Shown here: in pieces, positions 6,710 through 16,385 of the stretch
Layout: the number at the start of each line of letters is the position of its first letter
How positions within the stretch are numbered: the stretch's first letter is position 1
Origin: Enterovibrio calviensis DSM 14347
GTDB taxonomy: Bacteria; Pseudomonadota; Gammaproteobacteria; Enterobacterales; Vibrionaceae
DNA: 64,000 nt
Assembly: GCF_000621165.1 (NCBI RefSeq)
Contig: NZ_KK211217.1
Span: forward strand, 62,001 to 126,000
Direction: 5' to 3'
Translations under genes and position numbers: made by a program
The notes under the pieces: generated by a model
Seen by the model: only the letters and a program-made list of their open reading frames with translations
The model's database searches: none
What the model was told of the DNA's origin: nothing

Positions 6710-7450
6710 TTAGGACTTATTGAGTGCTGATTCAATCAGAGGGGCAAGTTTCTCTGCGGGTAAGTAACCTGGAACCACTTCATCACCAATGATCATGGCA
6801 GGCGTGCCACGAAGACCTAATTGTTGAAACAAGGTGTAGTTTTTCTCGACCATCTCATCGGTCGCTTCCTGATGCTTGAGTTGATCTCGTGTACCTGTTT
6901 TATCTGCAATACGTGCTAACGAGCGCTGATCATGAGCACTTGGTTTGGTGAGGAGTAATTGGTGAACATCGAAAAACTTTTCACGATCTTGCTGCCAAAC
7001 GTTGAGCGCATACGCCGCTGAGTTCATGTCCGACAAAGGCGCGCCCATTTCTTTCAATGGTACATAAATATTGACCACTTTAACGTCTGGGTAGGCTTTG
7101 GCCATGTCTAGGAGAACGGGATCAAGGCGTTTACAGAACGGACAGTTGTAGTCTGTAAAGTTGATGATCGTTAGCTTAGGTTCCGTTGCGCCAAACTGCG
7201 TGTGTTTTGGATTGCGATAGAGATAGTCATCATTGGCAGCTATTATGCTCTTGAAGCCTTGTTGCTGGGCCACATATTGGGTCAGGCTTTGATGCAAGCC
7301 TGAAATGATATCTGGGTTTTGTTCCAACAATACATTGATGTCATTGAGTTGCTGCTGCTGTGCTTCGTTCAATGACGCTTCAGACAGTGCGTTGAAAGAT
7401 GTCAGTGTGGTGAACATCGCCAAAAGCGCGGAAAATAGTTTATTTTTCAT
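6710..7450 (-). CDS. scsC: ScsC-like periplasmic thiol oxidoreductase (DsbA/DsbG fold)
   Basis: This 246-residue periplasmic thioredoxin-fold protein probably exchanges or isomerises disulfides. A signal peptide (MKNKLFSALLAMFTTLTSFNALSEA) is followed by a helical, Gln-rich N-terminal extension (about residues 27-75), then the thioredoxin domain with the CPFC active site (DYNCPFCKRLDP) and the cis-proline loop GTPAMIIG. Trimerising ScsC proteins such as that of Proteus have an N-terminal extension of this kind. It is the last gene of the unit and lies downstream of ScsD and ScsB, its likely reductase. I took the ATG at 7450; the upstream in-frame start would spoil the signal peptide. Confidence 0.87.
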   Translation of the reverse strand: MKNKLFSALLAMFTTLTSFNALSEASLNEAQQQQLNDINVLLEQNPDIISGLHQSLTQYVAQQQGFKSIIAANDDYLYRNPKHTQFGATEPKLTIINFTDYNCPFCKRLDPVLLDMAKAYPDVKVVNIYVPLKEMGAPLSDMNSAAYALNVWQQDREKFFDVHQLLLTKPSAHDQRSLARIADKTGTRDQLKHQEATDEMVEKNYTLFQQLGLRGTPAMIIGDEVVPGYLPAEKLAPLIESALNKS

Positions 7451-7467
7451 TTTGTACTCATCAATTA

Positions 7468-8004
7468 TTAGGAAAACCACAGGCGAGCCAGCAGACCCGG
7501 CGGCGTAGTAATACCTGTGGTTATAGATTCAATCTTGCCATCTTTGATAATGACGATGGTGGGTGTTGCTTGGACTCCCCATTGCTGTCCAATCGCGCCT
7601 CTCTCATCATTGACGGTATCAAACTCAAGATCATGACTATTGAGATAACCGCTGACTCGTCGGTTGTCGCCAGACGTCATGGCAATGGATACCACTTGAT
7701 AAGAATCGGACAGCCAATCAACGGTTGGCGTGACAAACTTGCACGCTGGACACCATGTCGCCCAGAAATAAAGCACGACGGGTTCATCACGACTGGCTGT
7801 GATTAAGTCGATGGTGTCTCCCGATATTGTGGTCAGTACCGTGGGTGGCACAGTGCCTTTTGGCATGTCTTGGGTTCGCCACCAATCTATCGCGAACGTC
7901 ATGATGCTGAAGAGTACGATCAAGGTCGCCAACTCTTTCAGCCACCACGTTGGGTTCTTCCATTTGCTTTTGGGTTTCACTTGTTGCGGCGTGTTGTCAC
8001 TCAT
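7468..8004 (-). CDS. scsD: ScsD-like membrane-anchored thioredoxin
   Basis: The 178-residue protein has one N-terminal membrane anchor (about residues 28-46, LATLIVLFSIMTFAIDWW) and a periplasmic thioredoxin/TlpA-like domain with the WCPAC active site (FWATWCPACKFVTP) and a GVQATPTIVII cis-proline loop. It probably receives electrons from ScsB and reduces periplasmic partners. The start codon (MSDNTPQQ) overlaps the end of scsB by a few bases, so the two genes are translationally linked; ScsC starts 17 bases after its stop. The gene order ScsB-ScsD-ScsC differs from the Salmonella order scsB-C-D. Confidence 0.88.
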   Translation of the reverse strand: MSDNTPQQVKPKSKWKNPTWWLKELATLIVLFSIMTFAIDWWRTQDMPKGTVPPTVLTTISGDTIDLITASRDEPVVLYFWATWCPACKFVTPTVDWLSDSYQVVSIAMTSGDNRRVSGYLNSHDLEFDTVNDERGAIGQQWGVQATPTIVIIKDGKIESITTGITTPPGLLARLWFS

Positions 8005-10108
8005 AAGACGATCCTTGTGCAAACGCGATGGCGCTGAGAACGGAATCCTTAGAAAGGATCACTGGCAGAGGGATGCCATTTGGCGCATTGGGGCCATAAA
8101 CGATATTGAACGGCACGCCATATCTGCCATGGCGTTGCAGGTACTGAGTAACGGAATCGCTAGGCGAGGTCCAATCGCCTTGCATTCGAATGATGTTTTC
8201 ACCATTGAGTGCACTGTAAACTGGCTCTTGAAGCAATACGCCAATCTTGTTGGCTTTACAAGTGATACACCAATCTGCCGTCACATCCACAAAGACGGTT
8301 TTACCTTGCCCCACATAATGACTTATCTGAGGTGAGGAGAGTTTCTCCCACGTATGATCAGAAGGTAGCGGTATGGCCCATTTGGATGCTGTTAAGCTTG
8401 CGGTCACTATGCCAATCACCAGTAATACCATCACCAAAGCACTTGCCACTACGGTTGTTTTCCGTCCGTACACTCTGGCTGTACGCCATAGCAACACGGC
8501 GATAACCGCCAAGATGATGGTAATGACTCCGCCCAAAGACAGATGATTTCCTAATAGAGATATTAACCAGATGCTGGTGGCTAACATCATCACCCCAAAG
8601 GCGACTTTTAAGATGTTCATCCAGCGGCCGGGTTTGGGTAAGCGCTGGGCGATGGATGGCATTGCGGCAACCAGCAACCAAGGCATTGCCATACCGAACG
8701 CTAATGCAGTGAAAACGACAAACAGCATGAGGTAGTTTGTGGTGAGGGCAAAAGCGACGGCCGTTCCCAGAAAAGGCGCAGAGCAAGGTGTCGCGAGTAA
8801 GGTCGCAAACATGCCTTGCGTGAAATGACCTACGTAAGAGTCATCCCCTTTGCTGGCGAGCCAAGTGCTTGCTGTGCTCGGAAGGCGGATTTCAAATAAG
8901 CCGAGCATGTTGGCAGCAAAAACGGCTGTTACTGCCACCATCACACCGATAAAGAGTGGGCTTTGAAATTGAATGCCCCAACCAAATGCGTGGCCGGTAA
9001 GCTTGAGTGCGCTAATAAACGCCGCAATCACCCAGAACGAAAATAGAATTCCCAACGCAGAGGCAATGAATTGGCGTCGAATCTGAGATTTTTCTAATCC
9101 TTGCGCGGATACAACACTGCTTAGCTTCATACCGAGAACGGGAAGGACACATGGCATGATGTTTAAAATCAGTCCGCCCAATACGGCAAATAAGATCGCC
9201 GTTAAAAATGCCGGTTGCGAAGGCGAGGTTGCAATGCCTCTTTTCGCTGTCGATGCATGCTCTGCGATAAAGCTGTCATCGAGAAACGTTACATTGAGTG
9301 TTTCGTCCGTTAACTCCGGTTGTCCCATCCAACTGCTTGCGTCAAAACGTGCGCGCAAGGTATTTCCCGTGACTTGAATGTTGGGAACGGAGAAGAAGGT
9401 GTCCTTAACCGCGTCGGTGTTTCCATCAATTATCACATCCGGAGTATTCCAGCCCGTCGCTTTTTGTGCGGTAACGTCTAATTGCTGCGCACTTGGATCC
9501 CATACGACAGACAGCTCATCAATAAGCGGTGAAGGTTGAGGCACATTGCTCATGCCTTGTGCAAAAAGATGAAGGGCATTTGGGTCAGTGATTAGTGCCG
9601 AAGGGGTGACGGCTAGATCAATAGGATAGTCTGTCAGAACACATATCGTTGTGCATGAAGATATGGTGAGTGTCCCCTTGATTGTCACTGGCTTGTTGAT
9701 GTCTTCGACCGTGAACGTCAAAGGGAAAACAGCGCGACTTTGGTATCCGAGTGTATCAATGCCCAATAAATCAAAGCGCTGAGGAGCGGGCCAATGCCAA
9801 GTAATGTCTTTGATGTTTTCTGATGCTAGCCAGTCAAAACTTGGTGCAATGCCGCCTTCACCAGGCGTTCGCCAATAGGTTTTCCAATCATCCTTTAATT
9901 GGACTTCCAAAAAGCCATCAAAGGTATTGTCGTCAGGATTGGTTGAGCCCGTTAACACGATGCGAGTGCTAAGCGGCGGGTGATTGGGGTTGGTTAGCCA
10001 GCCTGTTGAAAGGCTTTCTGCGTGAGCTGTCATTGCAGCCGACAGCGCGATCACGGCACTTATAATGAGTAAAGCGAACCGTTGTGAAAATGTCTTTAGC
10101 GCGTACAT
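7997..10108 (-). CDS. scsB: ScsB, DsbD-type transmembrane electron transporter
   Basis: This 703-residue inner-membrane protein moves reducing power from the cytoplasmic thioredoxin pool to periplasmic thiol proteins. It has a signal sequence, a large N-terminal periplasmic domain (about residues 30-290) with a CTTIC cysteine pair, a central eight-helix DsbD-like channel (about 300-580) with MPCVLPVLGMK and TPCSAPFLG motifs, and a C-terminal thioredoxin domain with the DWCITCK active site. The N-domain resembles ScsB rather than the shorter DsbD N-domain. The ATG at 10108 has an AGGAA site; a longer frame from 10153 lacks a clear one. It leads an operon with ScsD and ScsC. Related Scs systems protect against copper stress. 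Confidence 0.92.
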   Translation of the reverse strand: MYALKTFSQRFALLIISAVIALSAAMTAHAESLSTGWLTNPNHPPLSTRIVLTGSTNPDDNTFDGFLEVQLKDDWKTYWRTPGEGGIAPSFDWLASENIKDITWHWPAPQRFDLLGIDTLGYQSRAVFPLTFTVEDINKPVTIKGTLTISSCTTICVLTDYPIDLAVTPSALITDPNALHLFAQGMSNVPQPSPLIDELSVVWDPSAQQLDVTAQKATGWNTPDVIIDGNTDAVKDTFFSVPNIQVTGNTLRARFDASSWMGQPELTDETLNVTFLDDSFIAEHASTAKRGIATSPSQPAFLTAILFAVLGGLILNIMPCVLPVLGMKLSSVVSAQGLEKSQIRRQFIASALGILFSFWVIAAFISALKLTGHAFGWGIQFQSPLFIGVMVAVTAVFAANMLGLFEIRLPSTASTWLASKGDDSYVGHFTQGMFATLLATPCSAPFLGTAVAFALTTNYLMLFVVFTALAFGMAMPWLLVAAMPSIAQRLPKPGRWMNILKVAFGVMMLATSIWLISLLGNHLSLGGVITIILAVIAVLLWRTARVYGRKTTVVASALVMVLLVIGIVTASLTASKWAIPLPSDHTWEKLSSPQISHYVGQGKTVFVDVTADWCITCKANKIGVLLQEPVYSALNGENIIRMQGDWTSPSDSVTQYLQRHGRYGVPFNIVYGPNAPNGIPLPVILSKDSVLSAIAFAQGSSYE

Positions 10109-10172
10109 GTATGTATTCCTAGAAAATAAAACAAATATAAAAACGTCTGGCATGTGCCAGTTTTTAATGTGT

Positions 10173-10601
10173 TTATTCTTTAAAAACGCAAAACGTGAGG
10201 TGCAATCGCCGGGGGGGCGGAATGGGTTCTATGGTCTTTGGAACAAATGTTGATGTCGATAGCAGCCAAGCAAGAATGGCAAACGCTAGCACCCACATGG
10301 TGAATGTCGCCGACTCCCAAGTAGACGATGACAACTGAACAAGGTTTTCAGAGAGCTCGCAATGACCGGCCGATGTTGGGTTGGCTTGATTGGTCATTGG
10401 CTGGGAAGTTAGGTTAGATGCCTGAGAAGTACTTTGGGTTGATGACGCGCCGTCGATAGATAGAACGGGGCTATTGATACCGCAAACATTGAACAACCCT
10501 GCGTTTTGCGACAGACACACAAACACCACCCACCATACCAAGGTAAGTGCCCACTGCGCGCGTGTGCTGGGTGTTGTTGAGGGTTTGATTTGTCGTAACA
10601 T
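10173..10601 (-). CDS. Small membrane protein preceding scsB, possibly ScsA/DUF2946-like
   Basis: The 142-residue protein has two hydrophobic segments (about residues 17-38 and 92-113) separated by a Ser/Thr/Gln-rich, probably periplasmic loop that contains two cysteines (NVCGINSP and GHCELSEN). Small proteins with this layout often precede scsB in copper-tolerance clusters and have been called ScsA or DUF2946. I cannot confirm membership by eye. It is on the scs strand, 64 bases before scsB, so it is probably in the same operon. Confidence 0.6.
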   Translation of the reverse strand: MLRQIKPSTTPSTRAQWALTLVWWVVFVCLSQNAGLFNVCGINSPVLSIDGASSTQSTSQASNLTSQPMTNQANPTSAGHCELSENLVQLSSSTWESATFTMWVLAFAILAWLLSTSTFVPKTIEPIPPPRRLHLTFCVFKE

Positions 10602-10789: not shown

Positions 10790-11686
10790 CTATGGCGTAT
10801 CAGACACTGGCGCCGTTGCGTAGTGTTGAGGGCCAAGATGCGTCACTTCAGGAATGATGGTGGCGACTGTCATGGTTGACCATGTGCCCGCAACGATACC
10901 GATGAACATGGTGATGGAGAATCCGTACAGTGGCTCTCCGCCGAGCAACCAAAGCGAGCCCACAGAAATCAGCGTGGTACCCGATGTGATCAAGGTACGC
11001 GACAAGGTAGAAACAATGGCGCGGTTGTTCAATTCAGCAATCGGCAGACTGACGTTCGCTTTCAACAGTTCGCGAATGCGATCCGAAATGATGATGGAGT
11101 CATTGAGTGAGTAACCCAATACTGCCAACAATGCTGCTAACACGGTGAGGTTGAATTCCATTCCAGTGATGGAGAAGAAACCTAGCAGCAAGACCACGTC
11201 ATGAACCAAGGCCAGTAATGCACCTGAAGCCAGTCGCCATTCGAAACGCATGCTTAAGTAGCCAAGGATCACCAACAGCGTAATCAATACTGCTAATCCC
11301 CCTTGCTCTGCGAGTTCTTGCCCCACTTGTGGGCCAACCAAACTGACGTTGAGCATTTCAACGTTGTCTGAAAAACCACTGAGTAGCGTTTTGATTTCAG
11401 GCTGATCGCTTAGCGTCTCAGGTGCGGCATAACGAAGTACCCACTGACCTGGGTCACCGGCTTCTACCACCGACACGGGTTGGTTTAATGCGGTTTCTAA
11501 GTGAGATTGGATCTCTTTGGCTGTCAGGGTTTTATCCAGTCTGACTTCACTGATCATACCGCCCGTGAAATCGAGCCCGTAGTTCAAGCCTTTCGTGGCG
11601 AGTGTGAAAATGGAAATCAGCATCACCACGCAAGAGATGATGCTGCCTGCGTGGCGCAATTTGGTCATATTTTTCATTGTCATCAT
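10790..11686 (-). CDS. secF: Protein translocase subunit SecF (VemP-linked copy)
   Basis: SecF pairs with SecD in the inner membrane and uses an ion gradient to pull preproteins through SecYEG. The 298-residue protein has the six-helix layout: helix 1 near the N-terminus, a periplasmic domain (about residues 35-125, GLDFTGGMISEVRL), then five helices including VLGYSLNDSIIISDRIRE, the SecF signature. It begins 2 bases after the secD stop codon. No yajC precedes this pair; instead a VemP-like ORF does, which marks it as the secDF2 type known from Vibrio alginolyticus. A second, constitutive secDF copy would be expected elsewhere in the genome. Confidence 0.93.
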   Translation of the reverse strand: MMTMKNMTKLRHAGSIISCVVMLISIFTLATKGLNYGLDFTGGMISEVRLDKTLTAKEIQSHLETALNQPVSVVEAGDPGQWVLRYAAPETLSDQPEIKTLLSGFSDNVEMLNVSLVGPQVGQELAEQGGLAVLITLLVILGYLSMRFEWRLASGALLALVHDVVLLLGFFSITGMEFNLTVLAALLAVLGYSLNDSIIISDRIRELLKANVSLPIAELNNRAIVSTLSRTLITSGTTLISVGSLWLLGGEPLYGFSITMFIGIVAGTWSTMTVATIIPEVTHLGPQHYATAPVSDTP

Positions 11687-11688
11687 GG

Positions 11689-13503
11689 TTATACCCTCAC
11701 ATCACGGCGCGCATCTTTACCCCAAAATAGGTTAATCACCGCGCGAGAAGCGAAAATACCCGTGAACATGCTGGTCAATAGACCTAGCCCCAATGTGAGG
11801 GCGAAGCCCTGAATCGGACCATTACCGATTGCGTACAAGGTTGCGGCGGAAATTAGCGTGGTGATGTTTGAGTCCAAAATGGTGGCAAACGCACTGCTAA
11901 AGCCAAGATCGATTGATTGCGCGAAGCTTCGTCCTTCCCGCATTTTTTCTTTTATTCGCTCGAAGATAAGCACGTTGGTATCAACGGCCATACCGATGGT
12001 GAGAACCAGACCCGCAATACCCGGAAGCGTCAGAACGGCCCCTGGCAGTAATGCGATAAGACCTAGCAACATCACCATGTTGATGACAAGAGCAAGGTTC
12101 GCCACCCAACCCAGTTTGCGATACCACACCGCCATGAACAACAAGGTCAAACCCATGCCAAGAGCCAGCGCCGCGAAACCGTTTTGAATGTTTTCAGCGC
12201 CCAAAGAAGGGCCAATGGTGCGTTCTTCAACAATGGTGACCGGCGCAGTCAGTGAGCCTGCGCGCAGCAATAGCGCCAAGTCTTGGGCTTCATCAAGTTG
12301 GCCGACACCCGTAATGCGAAAGCGATTACCCAGTTGAGATTGAATCGTCGCAATGCTGATGATGGTGTTGGTTTGCTCGACATTGCCTTTGCTATCGCGG
12401 CTGTATTCGCTATAAGCCGTGCCCATTGGGTCGCCGATGTGCTTCGCCGAGTAATCTGACATCATTTTGCCGCCAGAGGCATCCAGTGAAATGTTCACTT
12501 CTGGCGTGCCCATTTCGCCCATTCCAGCTCGCGCATCCACAATGTGTTCGCCAGAAAGAATCGGTTTACGGCTCACGTAAACAGGGGCACCTTTGTCATC
12601 GGGGATCATCATTGAGCCCGGTGTCGGTGATGTTTTCACTTCATAGAAAGCCAAACTTGCCGTTGCGCCGATAACATTTTTTGCCGCAGCTGGGTCTTGA
12701 ACGCCTGGCAATTCAATGCGAATGCGGTGCTCTCCTTGACGTTGAACGGCCGCTTCAGTGATCCCCAATTCTTCGATGCGGCTGCGCATGGTTTGCAGGT
12801 TTTGTTGAACAGTCAGGTTGGTCAGTGTTTGTTTTTCAGCCTCTTTCAAGCGGACTGACAAGCCCAAATCACCTTCACCTTGCACATTCCATTGCGGGAA
12901 TTGCTCGCGAATATATTGTCGCACGGCACTTTGCGCCTCATCAGAGGGCGCATTTACCACGAAACCATCGGTGCTGGACTGGTGAACACGTAAGCCACGA
13001 ATGCGGCTTTCGCGGGCAAAGGTTTTGACGGATTCTGCTGCCTGATCGGCGTGAGAGCGGAATACCTGCTGCATATCCACATCGAGCAGGAACTGCACAC
13101 CACCACGTAAATCTAGTCCAAGCTTGATGGGTTTAAAGCCCATTTCAAGCAACCAACTTGGCGCGGCGGGTACCATACCGAGGGTGACAATGTCATCTTT
13201 GTTCGAGAACTCCGTCAGGATACCTTTGGTTTTGTTCTGATCGGCGGCATCTTGCAGAACAACGGTGGTGCTGTTGCCTTTTTGGTCAATGCGTTTTATG
13301 TCGATACTGTGAGCATCTAACTGATGTTTGAGGGTGACAGGGGCAGCGCCATTGTCTTTATGCTTGATGAAAACTGCGGCTTCTTCACCAAACCAAGAAG
13401 GGAGGGCGCTGAGAAGCATAATAATGATGGTCGTAACAAGAACGACGTATTTCCATGCTGGATAATGGTTCAGCACGGTCTTTCGTTTCGATTTTAACTG
13501 CAT
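11689..13503 (-). CDS. secD: Protein translocase subunit SecD (VemP-linked copy)
   Basis: SecD is the large inner-membrane partner of SecF. The 604-residue protein has an N-terminal helix, the DLRGGVQFLLDVD motif of the periplasmic P1 domain (about residue 125), a long periplasmic part, and five C-terminal helices with LTIGMAVDTNVLIFERIKEKMREG, the conserved acidic signature. I chose the ATG at 13503 (MQLKSKRK), preceded by GTGAGACG. The frame stays open to an ATG at 13566 that would run through the leader hairpin. In Vibrio the secDF2 genes are induced when export through Na+-driven SecDF1 is poor; the upstream VemP-like ORF suggests the same control here. Confidence 0.92.
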   Translation of the reverse strand: MQLKSKRKTVLNHYPAWKYVVLVTTIIIMLLSALPSWFGEEAAVFIKHKDNGAAPVTLKHQLDAHSIDIKRIDQKGNSTTVVLQDAADQNKTKGILTEFSNKDDIVTLGMVPAAPSWLLEMGFKPIKLGLDLRGGVQFLLDVDMQQVFRSHADQAAESVKTFARESRIRGLRVHQSSTDGFVVNAPSDEAQSAVRQYIREQFPQWNVQGEGDLGLSVRLKEAEKQTLTNLTVQQNLQTMRSRIEELGITEAAVQRQGEHRIRIELPGVQDPAAAKNVIGATASLAFYEVKTSPTPGSMMIPDDKGAPVYVSRKPILSGEHIVDARAGMGEMGTPEVNISLDASGGKMMSDYSAKHIGDPMGTAYSEYSRDSKGNVEQTNTIISIATIQSQLGNRFRITGVGQLDEAQDLALLLRAGSLTAPVTIVEERTIGPSLGAENIQNGFAALALGMGLTLLFMAVWYRKLGWVANLALVINMVMLLGLIALLPGAVLTLPGIAGLVLTIGMAVDTNVLIFERIKEKMREGRSFAQSIDLGFSSAFATILDSNITTLISAATLYAIGNGPIQGFALTLGLGLLTSMFTGIFASRAVINLFWGKDARRDVRV

Positions 13504-13661
13504 AGCAATCGTCTCACTGGCAACAGGCCAGCAACTTTGTCTTATACCAATCAGATTGGTATTCATTCATGACACGTAGAGACCCGCCAATACGACAAGT
13601 TCGCGTATGACTAAGTTTTCAAACGTGCAAAAGCGGTGAGCGAGGCGCTCAAACAAAAGAA
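13504..13661 (-). promoter_or_regulatory. vemP-secD intergenic leader with hairpins
   Basis: On the minus-strand RNA, between the VemP-like stop codon and the secD start, three short hairpins can be drawn. They are GAGCG/CGCTC just after the stop, a palindrome ACCAATC/GATTGGT (13546-13560), and CTGGC/GCCAG directly before the secD ribosome-binding site. In Vibrio alginolyticus, VemP stalling opens a stem that hides the secDF2 ribosome-binding site. The last hairpin here is a candidate for that role, but the true fold may involve the vemP 3' coding end. Confidence 0.55.
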
Positions 13662-14144
13662 TTAAGACGTGGCGTCAGATTGGCTAGCAAACCGATAGAG
13701 AAGGTTGGATTCCTTCCATCCTGAAATCCGATGGGAAGAAGGTAGGGCTCTTAGCGTCCAATCGTGCCAATAACGCGAAGAAACATACACATGGTGCAAT
13801 CGAGAGGGAATGCTTGAAGGTTCAAAATCGAAAACGAGTTCGTAGTTTGGTTCCGCATTGTGCAATCTCTCGGGTAAGAAAGAGCCATTTCGAAGCGTGG
13901 ATGCTAAATCGGGCGCGATGGATTTTGCGGGAGCGCGATGTTCTAGATGAGCATCGTTTTGTGATTGTGAGGTATCTTGCTGATGTTGGTGTTGGTGAGT
14001 CGCGGGAGACAGAACAACGCGCGAAAGATCTGAAGCGGCTGTTTGTTGGTCAAAAGATGTTGATGCACTAGCGGAAAAACAGACGAGCAGAAAACTGAGC
14101 AAAACGCCCAATAGACTTCGTTGTTTATTCCAAGAACGGCACAT
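13662..14144 (-). CDS. vemP: VemP-like export-monitoring arrest peptide
   Basis: VemP is a secreted nascent chain that stalls its own ribosome when Sec export is slow, thereby allowing translation of secDF2. From the ATG at 14144 (MCRSWNKQ) the protein has 160 residues, close to the 159 I recall for V. alginolyticus VemP. It has a positively charged signal peptide with a hydrophobic core (SLLGVLLSFLLVCFSASAS), a His/Gln-rich middle, and near the C-terminus VYVSSRYWHDW followed by HRISGWKESN, which matches the arrest core of VemP. A Gln lies at residue 155, near the stall site reported at Gln156. It directly precedes secD on the same strand. The tail (LLYRFASQ) differs from the Vibrio form as I remember it. 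A longer start at 14174 is possible. Confidence 0.85.
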   Translation of the reverse strand: MCRSWNKQRSLLGVLLSFLLVCFSASASTSFDQQTAASDLSRVVLSPATHQHQHQQDTSQSQNDAHLEHRAPAKSIAPDLASTLRNGSFLPERLHNAEPNYELVFDFEPSSIPSRLHHVYVSSRYWHDWTLRALPSSHRISGWKESNLLYRFASQSDATS

Positions 14145-14345
14145 ACAAGGACTCACCCATAAATTCGGTTTCATATTACTGGCGAGGACGGCTTTCAACA
14201 AGCAATGAATGCGGCTTTCTGCGGGATACTGTGATTGGTGAATCTTGTTCATCATCGATGAATTTCGACACGGCTTAACTGCAACGAACGTAAGCTTGAG
14301 GTTATACTAGCGCCTTATTCTATTTATCCTTTACTCGCAGTTTGA

Positions 14346-16385
<2,040 letters not shown>

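What the first reader, a model, noticed from the sequence alone, without database searches (positions are those of the whole stretch)
13662..14144. VemP-like translation-arrest peptide upstream of secD-secF
The ORF ends with HRISGWKESN, the arrest core of VemP. It has a signal peptide, a length close to VemP (160 against 159 residues), and directly precedes secD-secF on the same strand. In V. alginolyticus VemP senses export through SecDF1 and controls secDF2 for life at low sodium. This window would then carry the sensor and the induced translocase. The peptide is easy to miss because only its C-terminal 25 or so residues are conserved.
Basis: partly seen in the sequence, partly recalled or inferred. 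Interest (0 to 1): 0.8.

Follow-up and report, generated by a model that had tools for sequence, protein, structure and literature searches.

The report
Export-sensing VemP leader before secDF
A marine bacterium carries a small leader protein that very probably stalls its own ribosome when protein export fails and so switches on a spare export motor; this is a known kind of switch, but the same genome seems to hold a second, undescribed one in front of a membrane lipid-transporter gene.

Summary
The ORF is real: minus strand, 13662-14144, 160 codons, hydrophobic N-terminus, C-terminus HRISGWKESNLLYRFASQSDATS, directly before secD-secF. It is a VemP orthologue in an Enterovibrio: it carries the published consensus RxxxWKxxNxxY, is under purifying selection (dN/dS 0.16-0.19), and 15 of 18 same-genus genomes hold it, all upstream of secD. 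A second secD-secF locus exists elsewhere in the genome. VemP is a known family, so this is a new member of a known kind. Two cautions: six of 15 specified arrest-motif positions differ from V. alginolyticus, including L153A, which weakens arrest there; and the secD ribosome-binding site is predicted to be folded away, but occlusion by a stalled ribosome does not open it in this sequence. New, beyond the finding: VemP-like leaders also precede genes other than secDF. The window's own genome has one (RLAGWQDANLQFRFIHSR*) upstream of a DedA-family gene. Similar leaders precede 41 of 50 Vibrionaceae dedA genes inspected, yqjA in 16 of 198 genomes of another family, dedA-secDF operons, and chaA-like and S41-peptidase-like genes. 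My full-text searches found none of these described. Arrest by them is inferred, not shown.

The parts
13662..14144 (-). vemP orthologue, 160 codons plus stop, from MCRSW
14064..14117 (-). hydrophobic N-terminal secretion signal, about residues 10-27 (by eye)
   Evidence: sequence; conserved in sisters
13677..13733 (-). arrest core H138-S156 (HRISGWKESNLLYRFASQS)
   Evidence: position by alignment; motif from PMC7897499 passages
13511..13596 (-). predicted stem-loop that covers the secD ribosome-binding site (5' arm 13596-13581, 3' arm 13529-13511)
   Evidence: -32.2 kcal/mol, z -2.36, 3 of 200 shuffles as good; no covariation evidence, sisters too similar
11689..13503 (-). secD2-type gene, 604 codons from MQLKSK (frame open to 13566)
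10790..11686 (-). secF2-type gene

Best explanation
The ORF is the VemP orthologue of an Enterovibrio: a secreted leader peptide whose C-terminal core stalls the ribosome in the exit tunnel unless the Sec machinery with the constitutive SecDF1 pulls on it. While export works the arrest is released and the secD2 ribosome-binding site stays folded away. When SecDF1 fails (in V. alginolyticus, at low sodium) the stalled ribosome leads to translation of secD2-secF2. Shown here: the gene, its conservation and place, the second secDF locus, a predicted hairpin over the secD ribosome-binding site. Inferred from V. alginolyticus: arrest, release by pulling, sodium as the input. Unclear: how a ribosome stalled near codon 155 opens a hairpin whose 5' arm starts about 65 nt past the vemP stop.
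For: R139, G142, W143, K144, N147, Y150 invariant in the 13 leaders that I aligned out of 23 secD-adjacent ones found without a motif filter; of the others, L027 has Q144, L028 A142 and L012 a stop. Published consensus RxxxWKxxNxxY met (PMC10987492, passages). 15 of 18 same-genus genomes, all upstream of secD. dN/dS 0.155-0.187 against three sisters. Second secDF locus. As a group, 98 secD leaders: ribosome-binding-site unpaired probability 0.339 in full, 0.388 with 5' part shuffled, 0.437 with stalled-ribosome RNA removed.
Against: Six of 15 specified arrest positions differ (T146S, A148L, M149L, V151R, L153A, N154S). In V. alginolyticus L153A reduces stalling and N154 is the residue that clashes with U2585 and U2506. 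Simple occlusion opens nothing in the window's own RNA (0.213 full, 0.214 stalled). No family model hit. No expression or stalling data.
Confidence: 0.8

Rival explanations
1. The window's leader is a weakened VemP: the tunnel anchor is kept, but Ala153 and the other changes near the peptidyl-transferase centre make arrest feeble, so that secDF2 is nearly constitutive or regulated otherwise.
For: Only the window has A153 among 15 Enterovibrio-type leaders, the other 14 have YR[FY]ISQ; A153 is found in 2 of 112 secD leaders; L153A reduces stalling in V. alginolyticus; no RNA opening predicted. Decay happens in the genus: the G004 leader has an in-frame stop in its core.
Against: dN/dS 0.155-0.187; intact frame; residues 148-156 vary widely among secD leaders, so V. 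alginolyticus rules need not hold.
Confidence: 0.15
2. Chance ORF or an unrelated secreted protein.
For: Weak whole-protein similarity; no family model.
Against: Core pattern in 0 of 6,189 ORFs of reversed sequences; upstream of secD in all 15 same-genus holders; purifying selection.
Confidence: 0.02

Closest known systems
VemP of Vibrio alginolyticus (PDB 5nwy; PMC5449182, PMC11470409)
   Same: Exported leader upstream of secD2-secF2; R139, G142, W143, K144, N147, Y150 at the same residue numbers; second secDF1 set in the genome.
   Different: Six of 15 specified arrest positions differ; P-site residue 156 is Ser, not Gln; the Arg at 85 follows the hydrophobic stretch directly (by eye) where V. 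alginolyticus has three residues between; longer gap to secD (158 nt).
VemP-like sequences of Fujiwara et al. 2024 (PMC10987492: 339 sequences from 339 genomes)
   Same: Consensus RxxxWKxxNxxY, secDF downstream, signal, spacer over 30 residues.
   Different: Whether Enterovibrio is among the 339 could not be seen (supplements not available). That screen looked only upstream of secA, secDF and yidC, so leaders of dedA, yqjA, chaA-like or S41-like genes lay outside it.
SecM, MifM, ApdA/ApdP, RQH leaders
   Same: Same logic: exported or inserted leader, arrest, induction of a localisation gene (PMC7897499, PMC10987492, passages).
   Different: Unrelated arrest motifs; none is seen in this ORF (by eye).

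Membership tests
VemP | uORF directly upstream of secDF, same strand | tested here: met
VemP | N-terminal export signal and a spacer over 30 residues to the core | tested here: met
   hydrophobic residues about 10-27, core from 138 (by eye; no signal-peptide predictor run)
VemP | Published consensus RxxxWKxxNxxY | tested here: met
   consensus from PMC10987492 passages
VemP | V. alginolyticus arrest motif HRIxGWKETNAMYVxLNxx | tested here: inconclusive
   9 of 15 specified positions match; most relatives also differ in the second half, so it defines the species' protein more than the family
VemP | Second, constitutive secDF1 set in the genome | tested here: met
   G000:C9; constitutive expression not tested
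VemP | secD2 ribosome-binding site in a stem-loop that a stalled ribosome opens | tested here: inconclusive
   stem-loop predicted; opening not predicted for the window
VemP | Sec-side elements: (hydrophilic)xP, short hydrophobic segment, Arg-85 three residues after it | tested here: inconclusive
   P72 invariant in A1; R70-A-P72 and R85 present, spacing differs (by eye)
VemP | Translation arrest released by export | not testable with these tools
   needs PURE translation, toeprint, reporter
VemP (second leader of the same genome, L231) | Upstream of secDF; consensus RxxxWKxxNxxY | tested here: not met
   RLAGWQDANLQFRFIHSR*: K144 is Gln, Y150 is Phe; downstream gene is dedA. Not filed as VemP; it may still work like it

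The most novel reading that the evidence does not exclude
VemP is one branch of a wider family of export-sensing arrest leaders. The window's own organism has two, one for secDF2 and one for a DedA-family gene (DedA proteins are candidate undecaprenyl-phosphate translocases, PMC9876793). One signal, failing or sodium-starved Sec export, would switch on both a spare export motor and a lipid-carrier transporter. This would give another reading of why loss of secD1, secF1 or ppiD suppresses loss of the DUF368 translocase in Vibrio cholerae: those losses should stabilise arrest and raise DedA. Against it: that paper reports the secDF1-deletion proteome as unchanged apart from more SecD2 and SecF2; I could not check whether that species has a dedA leader; most dedA leaders carry Gln where V. 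alginolyticus needs a basic residue.
Probability: 0.5. Interest if true: 0.82.

Novelty: new member of a known kind. Interest (0 to 1): 0.52.

Why it matters
For the window ORF alone: one more VemP, useful because the half nearest the peptidyl-transferase centre differs. The Enterovibrio and Grimontia leaders with YR[FY]ISQ and the window's lone Ala153 are natural variants that would show which part of VemP anchors in the tunnel and which part blocks peptide bond formation. For the wider family, if true: arrest leaders would couple export failure to envelope upkeep and not only to secretion genes, and the published puzzle of the secD1, secF1 and ppiD suppressors would become directly testable.

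Tried and rejected
Dispersed repeat: the palindrome at 13544-13562 looked mobile, but its core ACCAATCNGATTGGT occurs at two sites in this genome and at one site in each of four of the seven related genomes searched, twice in this same gap; rejected. Rfam over 13400-14400: nothing. Occlusion model for the window: no support. Covariation of the hairpin: three sisters too similar. Plasmid collection: no match for the yqjA and dedA leaders; the one dedA found there (a Photobacterium damselae plasmid) has cysK annotated just upstream. E. coli yqjA-mzrA: in the one strain read there is only a 27-residue ORF before yqjA; in 5,375 of 5,426 genomes a match exists, none covering 80% of leader plus yqjA. 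Chance hits of the motif: L069, L079, L093, L154; G734 outside the order was not examined. Dropped before counts: 14 near-identical Vibrio regions before the RNA test (119 of 133 used); L012 with its stop was left out of the 15 Enterovibrio-type leaders. Of 70 places, 50 were read; of 104 dedA places, 50 were counted (30 returned as loci, 20 that I chose); two more (G002, G015) were read later and are not in the count. Patterns B and C for dedA leaders were written after seeing the sequences. In one search the search pattern itself demanded W, N and Y, so their invariance is by construction. Structure prediction was not used: the core folds in the ribosome tunnel.

Full report
WHAT IS THERE. 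The ORF at 13662-14144 is on the minus strand. It encodes 160 residues from MCRSW with a hydrophobic N-terminus and ends HRISGWKESNLLYRFASQSDATS. The frame is open to 14255, but a sister genome's frame opens only four codons before the same Met (L010), so the 160-residue start is likely. secD (11689-13503) and secF (10790-11686) follow on the same strand; an ORF that is ligA by eye (14346-16385, plus) diverges upstream.

WHICH ORGANISM. The window is G000:C2:62001-126000 of a 5.50-Mb genome. Its nearest named relatives by the leader are Enterovibrio sp. ZSDZ42 (83%), E. baiacu A649 (80%) and E. norvegicus DSM 15893 (80%).

IS IT VemP. Yes. In PDB the relevant chain is the VemP nascent chain 5nwy, matched weakly (E 8.4; 14.2 bits over the core). 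In the 13 leaders that I aligned, out of 23 secD-adjacent ones found by protein search, R139, G142, W143, K144, N147 and Y150 are invariant; among those not aligned L027 has Q144, L028 A142 and L012 a stop. These six fit the published consensus RxxxWKxxNxxY (PMC10987492, passages); R139, W143, K144 and Y150 contact A752, uL22, U747 and C2610 in the cryo-EM structure (PMC5449182, section 4 read). 15 of 18 same-genus genomes hold the leader, all 15 upstream of secD. The other three (G002, G013, G015; 2.6-3.7 Mb) have one secD each, 43-44% identical to the window's, like secD1. dN/dS against three sisters is 0.155, 0.179 and 0.187. The second locus, by eye queA-tgt-yajC-secD1-secF1, is on G000:C9; no motif leader was found there.

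WHERE IT DIFFERS. V. alginolyticus needs HRIxGWKETNAMYVxLNxx (PMC7897499, passages). Of 15 specified positions 9 match; T146S, A148L, M149L, V151R, L153A and N154S differ. In the 84 distinct C-termini of 112 secD leaders, positions 151-156 vary widely, while position 139 is R in 82, 142 is G in 83 and 144 is K in 82 (W, N and Y were demanded by the search pattern, and R/K/H at 139 and K/R/Q/stop at 144 were the only letters it allowed; many loci came from a GGNTGGAAR pattern). So the family keeps a tunnel anchor and changes the segment near the peptidyl-transferase centre. Of 15 Enterovibrio-type leaders (one in Vibrio renipiscarius, L100) 14 have YR[FY]ISQ; the window alone has YRFASQ. Ala153 reduces stalling in V. 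alginolyticus and occurs in 2 of 112 secD leaders. Whether arrest is weaker here is open.

RNA. The secD ribosome-binding site lies in a predicted stem-loop (13490-13600 folded: -32.2 kcal/mol, z -2.36, 3 of 200 shuffles as good). The longer leader is less striking (z -1.52, 15 of 200). Across 98 secD leaders the mean unpaired probability of the site is 0.339 in full, 0.388 with the 5' part shuffled, 0.437 with the RNA under a stalled ribosome removed; it rises by more than 0.1 in 40 and falls by more than 0.1 in 2 (a shorter RNA is in itself more open, which the shuffled control meets only in part). For the window it is 0.213 and 0.214, and the 5' arm starts about 65 nt past the vemP stop. 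Opening is therefore mildly supported for the group and not for this sequence. Of the other targets, 3 of 3 S41-like regions, 0 of 3 chaA-like and 0 of 15 yqjA regions rise by more than 0.1.

LEADERS WITHOUT secDF. A DNA pattern for GWK[ED]xNxxY hits 68 of 394 genomes of the order, 70 places (reversed pattern 3 of 394), and 1 of 365 genomes of the class outside the order (reversed 1 of 369). I read 50 of the 70 places: 38 upstream of secD, 4 of yqjA, 2 of an S41-peptidase-like gene, 1 of a chaA-like gene, 1 at a contig end, 4 chance. Named holders upstream of secD include Shewanella, Moritella, Ferrimonas, Photobacterium, Grimontia and Vibrio.

yqjA. A profile of four leaders (A2) finds 16 of 198 genomes of family f19, in 12 of 154 genera; all 16 lie upstream of yqjA, a DedA-family gene (VTT domain). 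Signal region and C-terminal core are kept while the middle is not: the last 20 residues of L073 match L074, L175 and L180 at 14, 15 and 13 positions, the next 70 or so at 20/67, 19/70 and 15/70. dN/dS is 0.09-0.40 in four pairs. In L073 yqjA is followed by an mzrA-like ORF that matches Pfam SecD-TM1 (70.4 bits); similar ORFs follow in L072, L074 and L075. A term search of the MzrA paper finds no 'SecD' (PMC2727453). E. coli has yqjA-mzrA without this leader in the strain read.

dedA IN THE WINDOW'S OWN GENOME. G000:C1:612390-612977 encodes a DedA protein 69% identical to that of G001. A leader with a hydrophobic N-terminus ends RLAGWQDANLQFRFIHSR*, 120 nt before it (L231). Of 104 Vibrionaceae dedA places (99 of 247 genomes) I classed 50: 18 have anchor plus tail, 16 only the tail (about L.[YF]RF.H), 7 a variant tail (NLYSR[FY]AHA or LQYRYLQA), 9 none. 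The same patterns hit 0 of 6,189 ORFs of reversed sequences; the two tail-only patterns hit 0 of 1,631 ORFs of 48 named loci. They were written after seeing the sequences. The last 20 residues are kept better than the 70 before (L231/L232 20/20 and 42/70; L231/L222 17/20 and 24/70); dN/dS 0.08-0.28 in five pairs. Grimontia VemP (RIAGWKDSNLQYRFIS, L014) and the dedA leader L233 (RLAGWQDSNLQYRFIHS) are nearly the same here, so common descent is likely. At position 144 the 18 anchored dedA leaders have Gln 14 times, His 3 times, Arg once (counted by eye). In V. alginolyticus any change of K144 other than to Arg or His relieves stalling (PMC8887479, passages), so arrest by this branch must be tested.

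OPERONS AND OTHER TARGETS. In G001, G003 and G017 such a leader precedes dedA and then a third secD and a secF-like ORF; L246 (G1135) has leader, dedA and secD. DedA of G001 and YqjA of L073 are 39% identical. chaA-like genes follow leaders in G331, G687, G715 and G710. S41-like genes follow leaders in G135, G176 and the MAG Shewanella sp. DT_112 (the S41 domain is just under its Pfam cut-off, its N-terminal domain above). A small secreted ORF follows decayed-looking leaders in G690 and G680.

DECAY. In the reduced genome G004 secD2 is kept (78%) but the leader has an in-frame stop in its core, and before dedA only a fragment resembling the N-terminus of the dedA leader is seen. G002 and G015 show dedA without a leader. 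That these may be luminous fish symbionts is recalled, not tested.

READING. For the window: a VemP orthologue that regulates secDF2 by export-sensitive arrest. For the wider family: export sensors with several targets. A published result fits, with a caveat. In V. cholerae, loss of secD1, secF1 or ppiD suppresses loss of the DUF368 lipid-carrier translocase, extra YghB (DedA) rescues it, and a yghB mutant cannot grow without sodium above pH 6 (PMC9876793, passages and section 9). SecDF and PpiD/YfgM are factors that release VemP arrest (PMC11470409, passages). Against it, the same paper reports no proteome change without secDF1 except more SecD2 and SecF2, explains the suppression by sodium flux, and does not name VemP.

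IN PRINT. VemP is well described. For the other leaders: 'yqjA' + 'leader peptide' 0 papers, 'DedA' + 'translation arrest' 0, 'VemP' + 'DedA' 5, unrelated by title, two of 'DedA', 'SecDF', 'arrest peptide' 20 papers, 10 listed, of which only PMC9876793 joins DedA and SecDF in this sense and was searched, 'Enterovibrio' + 'SecDF' 0, two of 'YghB', 'upstream ORF', 'DedA' 35 papers, 15 listed, none with 'upstream ORF', 'yqjA' + 'mzrA' 5, one term-searched. Seen of papers: PMC10987492 outline, section 6, passages; PMC5449182 outline, sections 3 and 4; PMC7897499, PMC11470409, PMC8887479 and PMC2727453 passages; PMC9876793 outline, passages, section 9. Ishii 2015 and Mori 2018 were not seen.

Noticed in passing
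L231:983-1381 + (G000 contig C1, the window's own genome): Second VemP-like leader, ending RLAGWQDANLQFRFIHSR*, 120 nt upstream of a DedA-family gene; related leaders precede 41 of 50 Vibrionaceae dedA genes inspected.
   Followed up: yes
L217, L218, L219 (G001, G003, G017): Apparent operon leader-dedA-secD-secF, a third secDF set in three Enterovibrio genomes.
   Followed up: partly
L165-L180 (family f19): VemP-like leaders upstream of yqjA in 16 of 198 genomes; the mzrA-like ORF after yqjA (L073) matches Pfam SecD-TM1, so MzrA may descend from SecD.
   Followed up: partly
L163, L183, L184, L255: VemP-like leaders upstream of chaA-like ion exchanger genes in four genomes.
   Followed up: partly
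L095, L096, L134: VemP-like leaders upstream of secreted S41-peptidase-like genes.
   Followed up: partly
L248, L254: Decayed-looking leaders (FHLxGWKQANLLYVFKH) upstream of a small secreted protein, with dedA on the other strand nearby.
   Followed up: no
L012 and L220 (G004), L244, L285, L286: In small Enterovibrio genomes the leaders are broken or missing while secD2 (G004) and dedA (G004, G002, G015) remain.
   Followed up: partly
L100 (Vibrio renipiscarius): Carries an Enterovibrio-type leader (58% identity) with a secD 79% identical to the window's; transfer or a taxonomic matter.
   Followed up: no
window 6710-10601, minus strand: Downstream of secF on the same strand lie ORFs that by eye look like a small membrane protein, a DsbD-like protein and two thioredoxin-fold proteins.
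   Followed up: no
window 13544-13562: Perfect palindrome ATACCAATCAGATTGGTAT between vemP and secD; not a dispersed repeat.
   Followed up: yes
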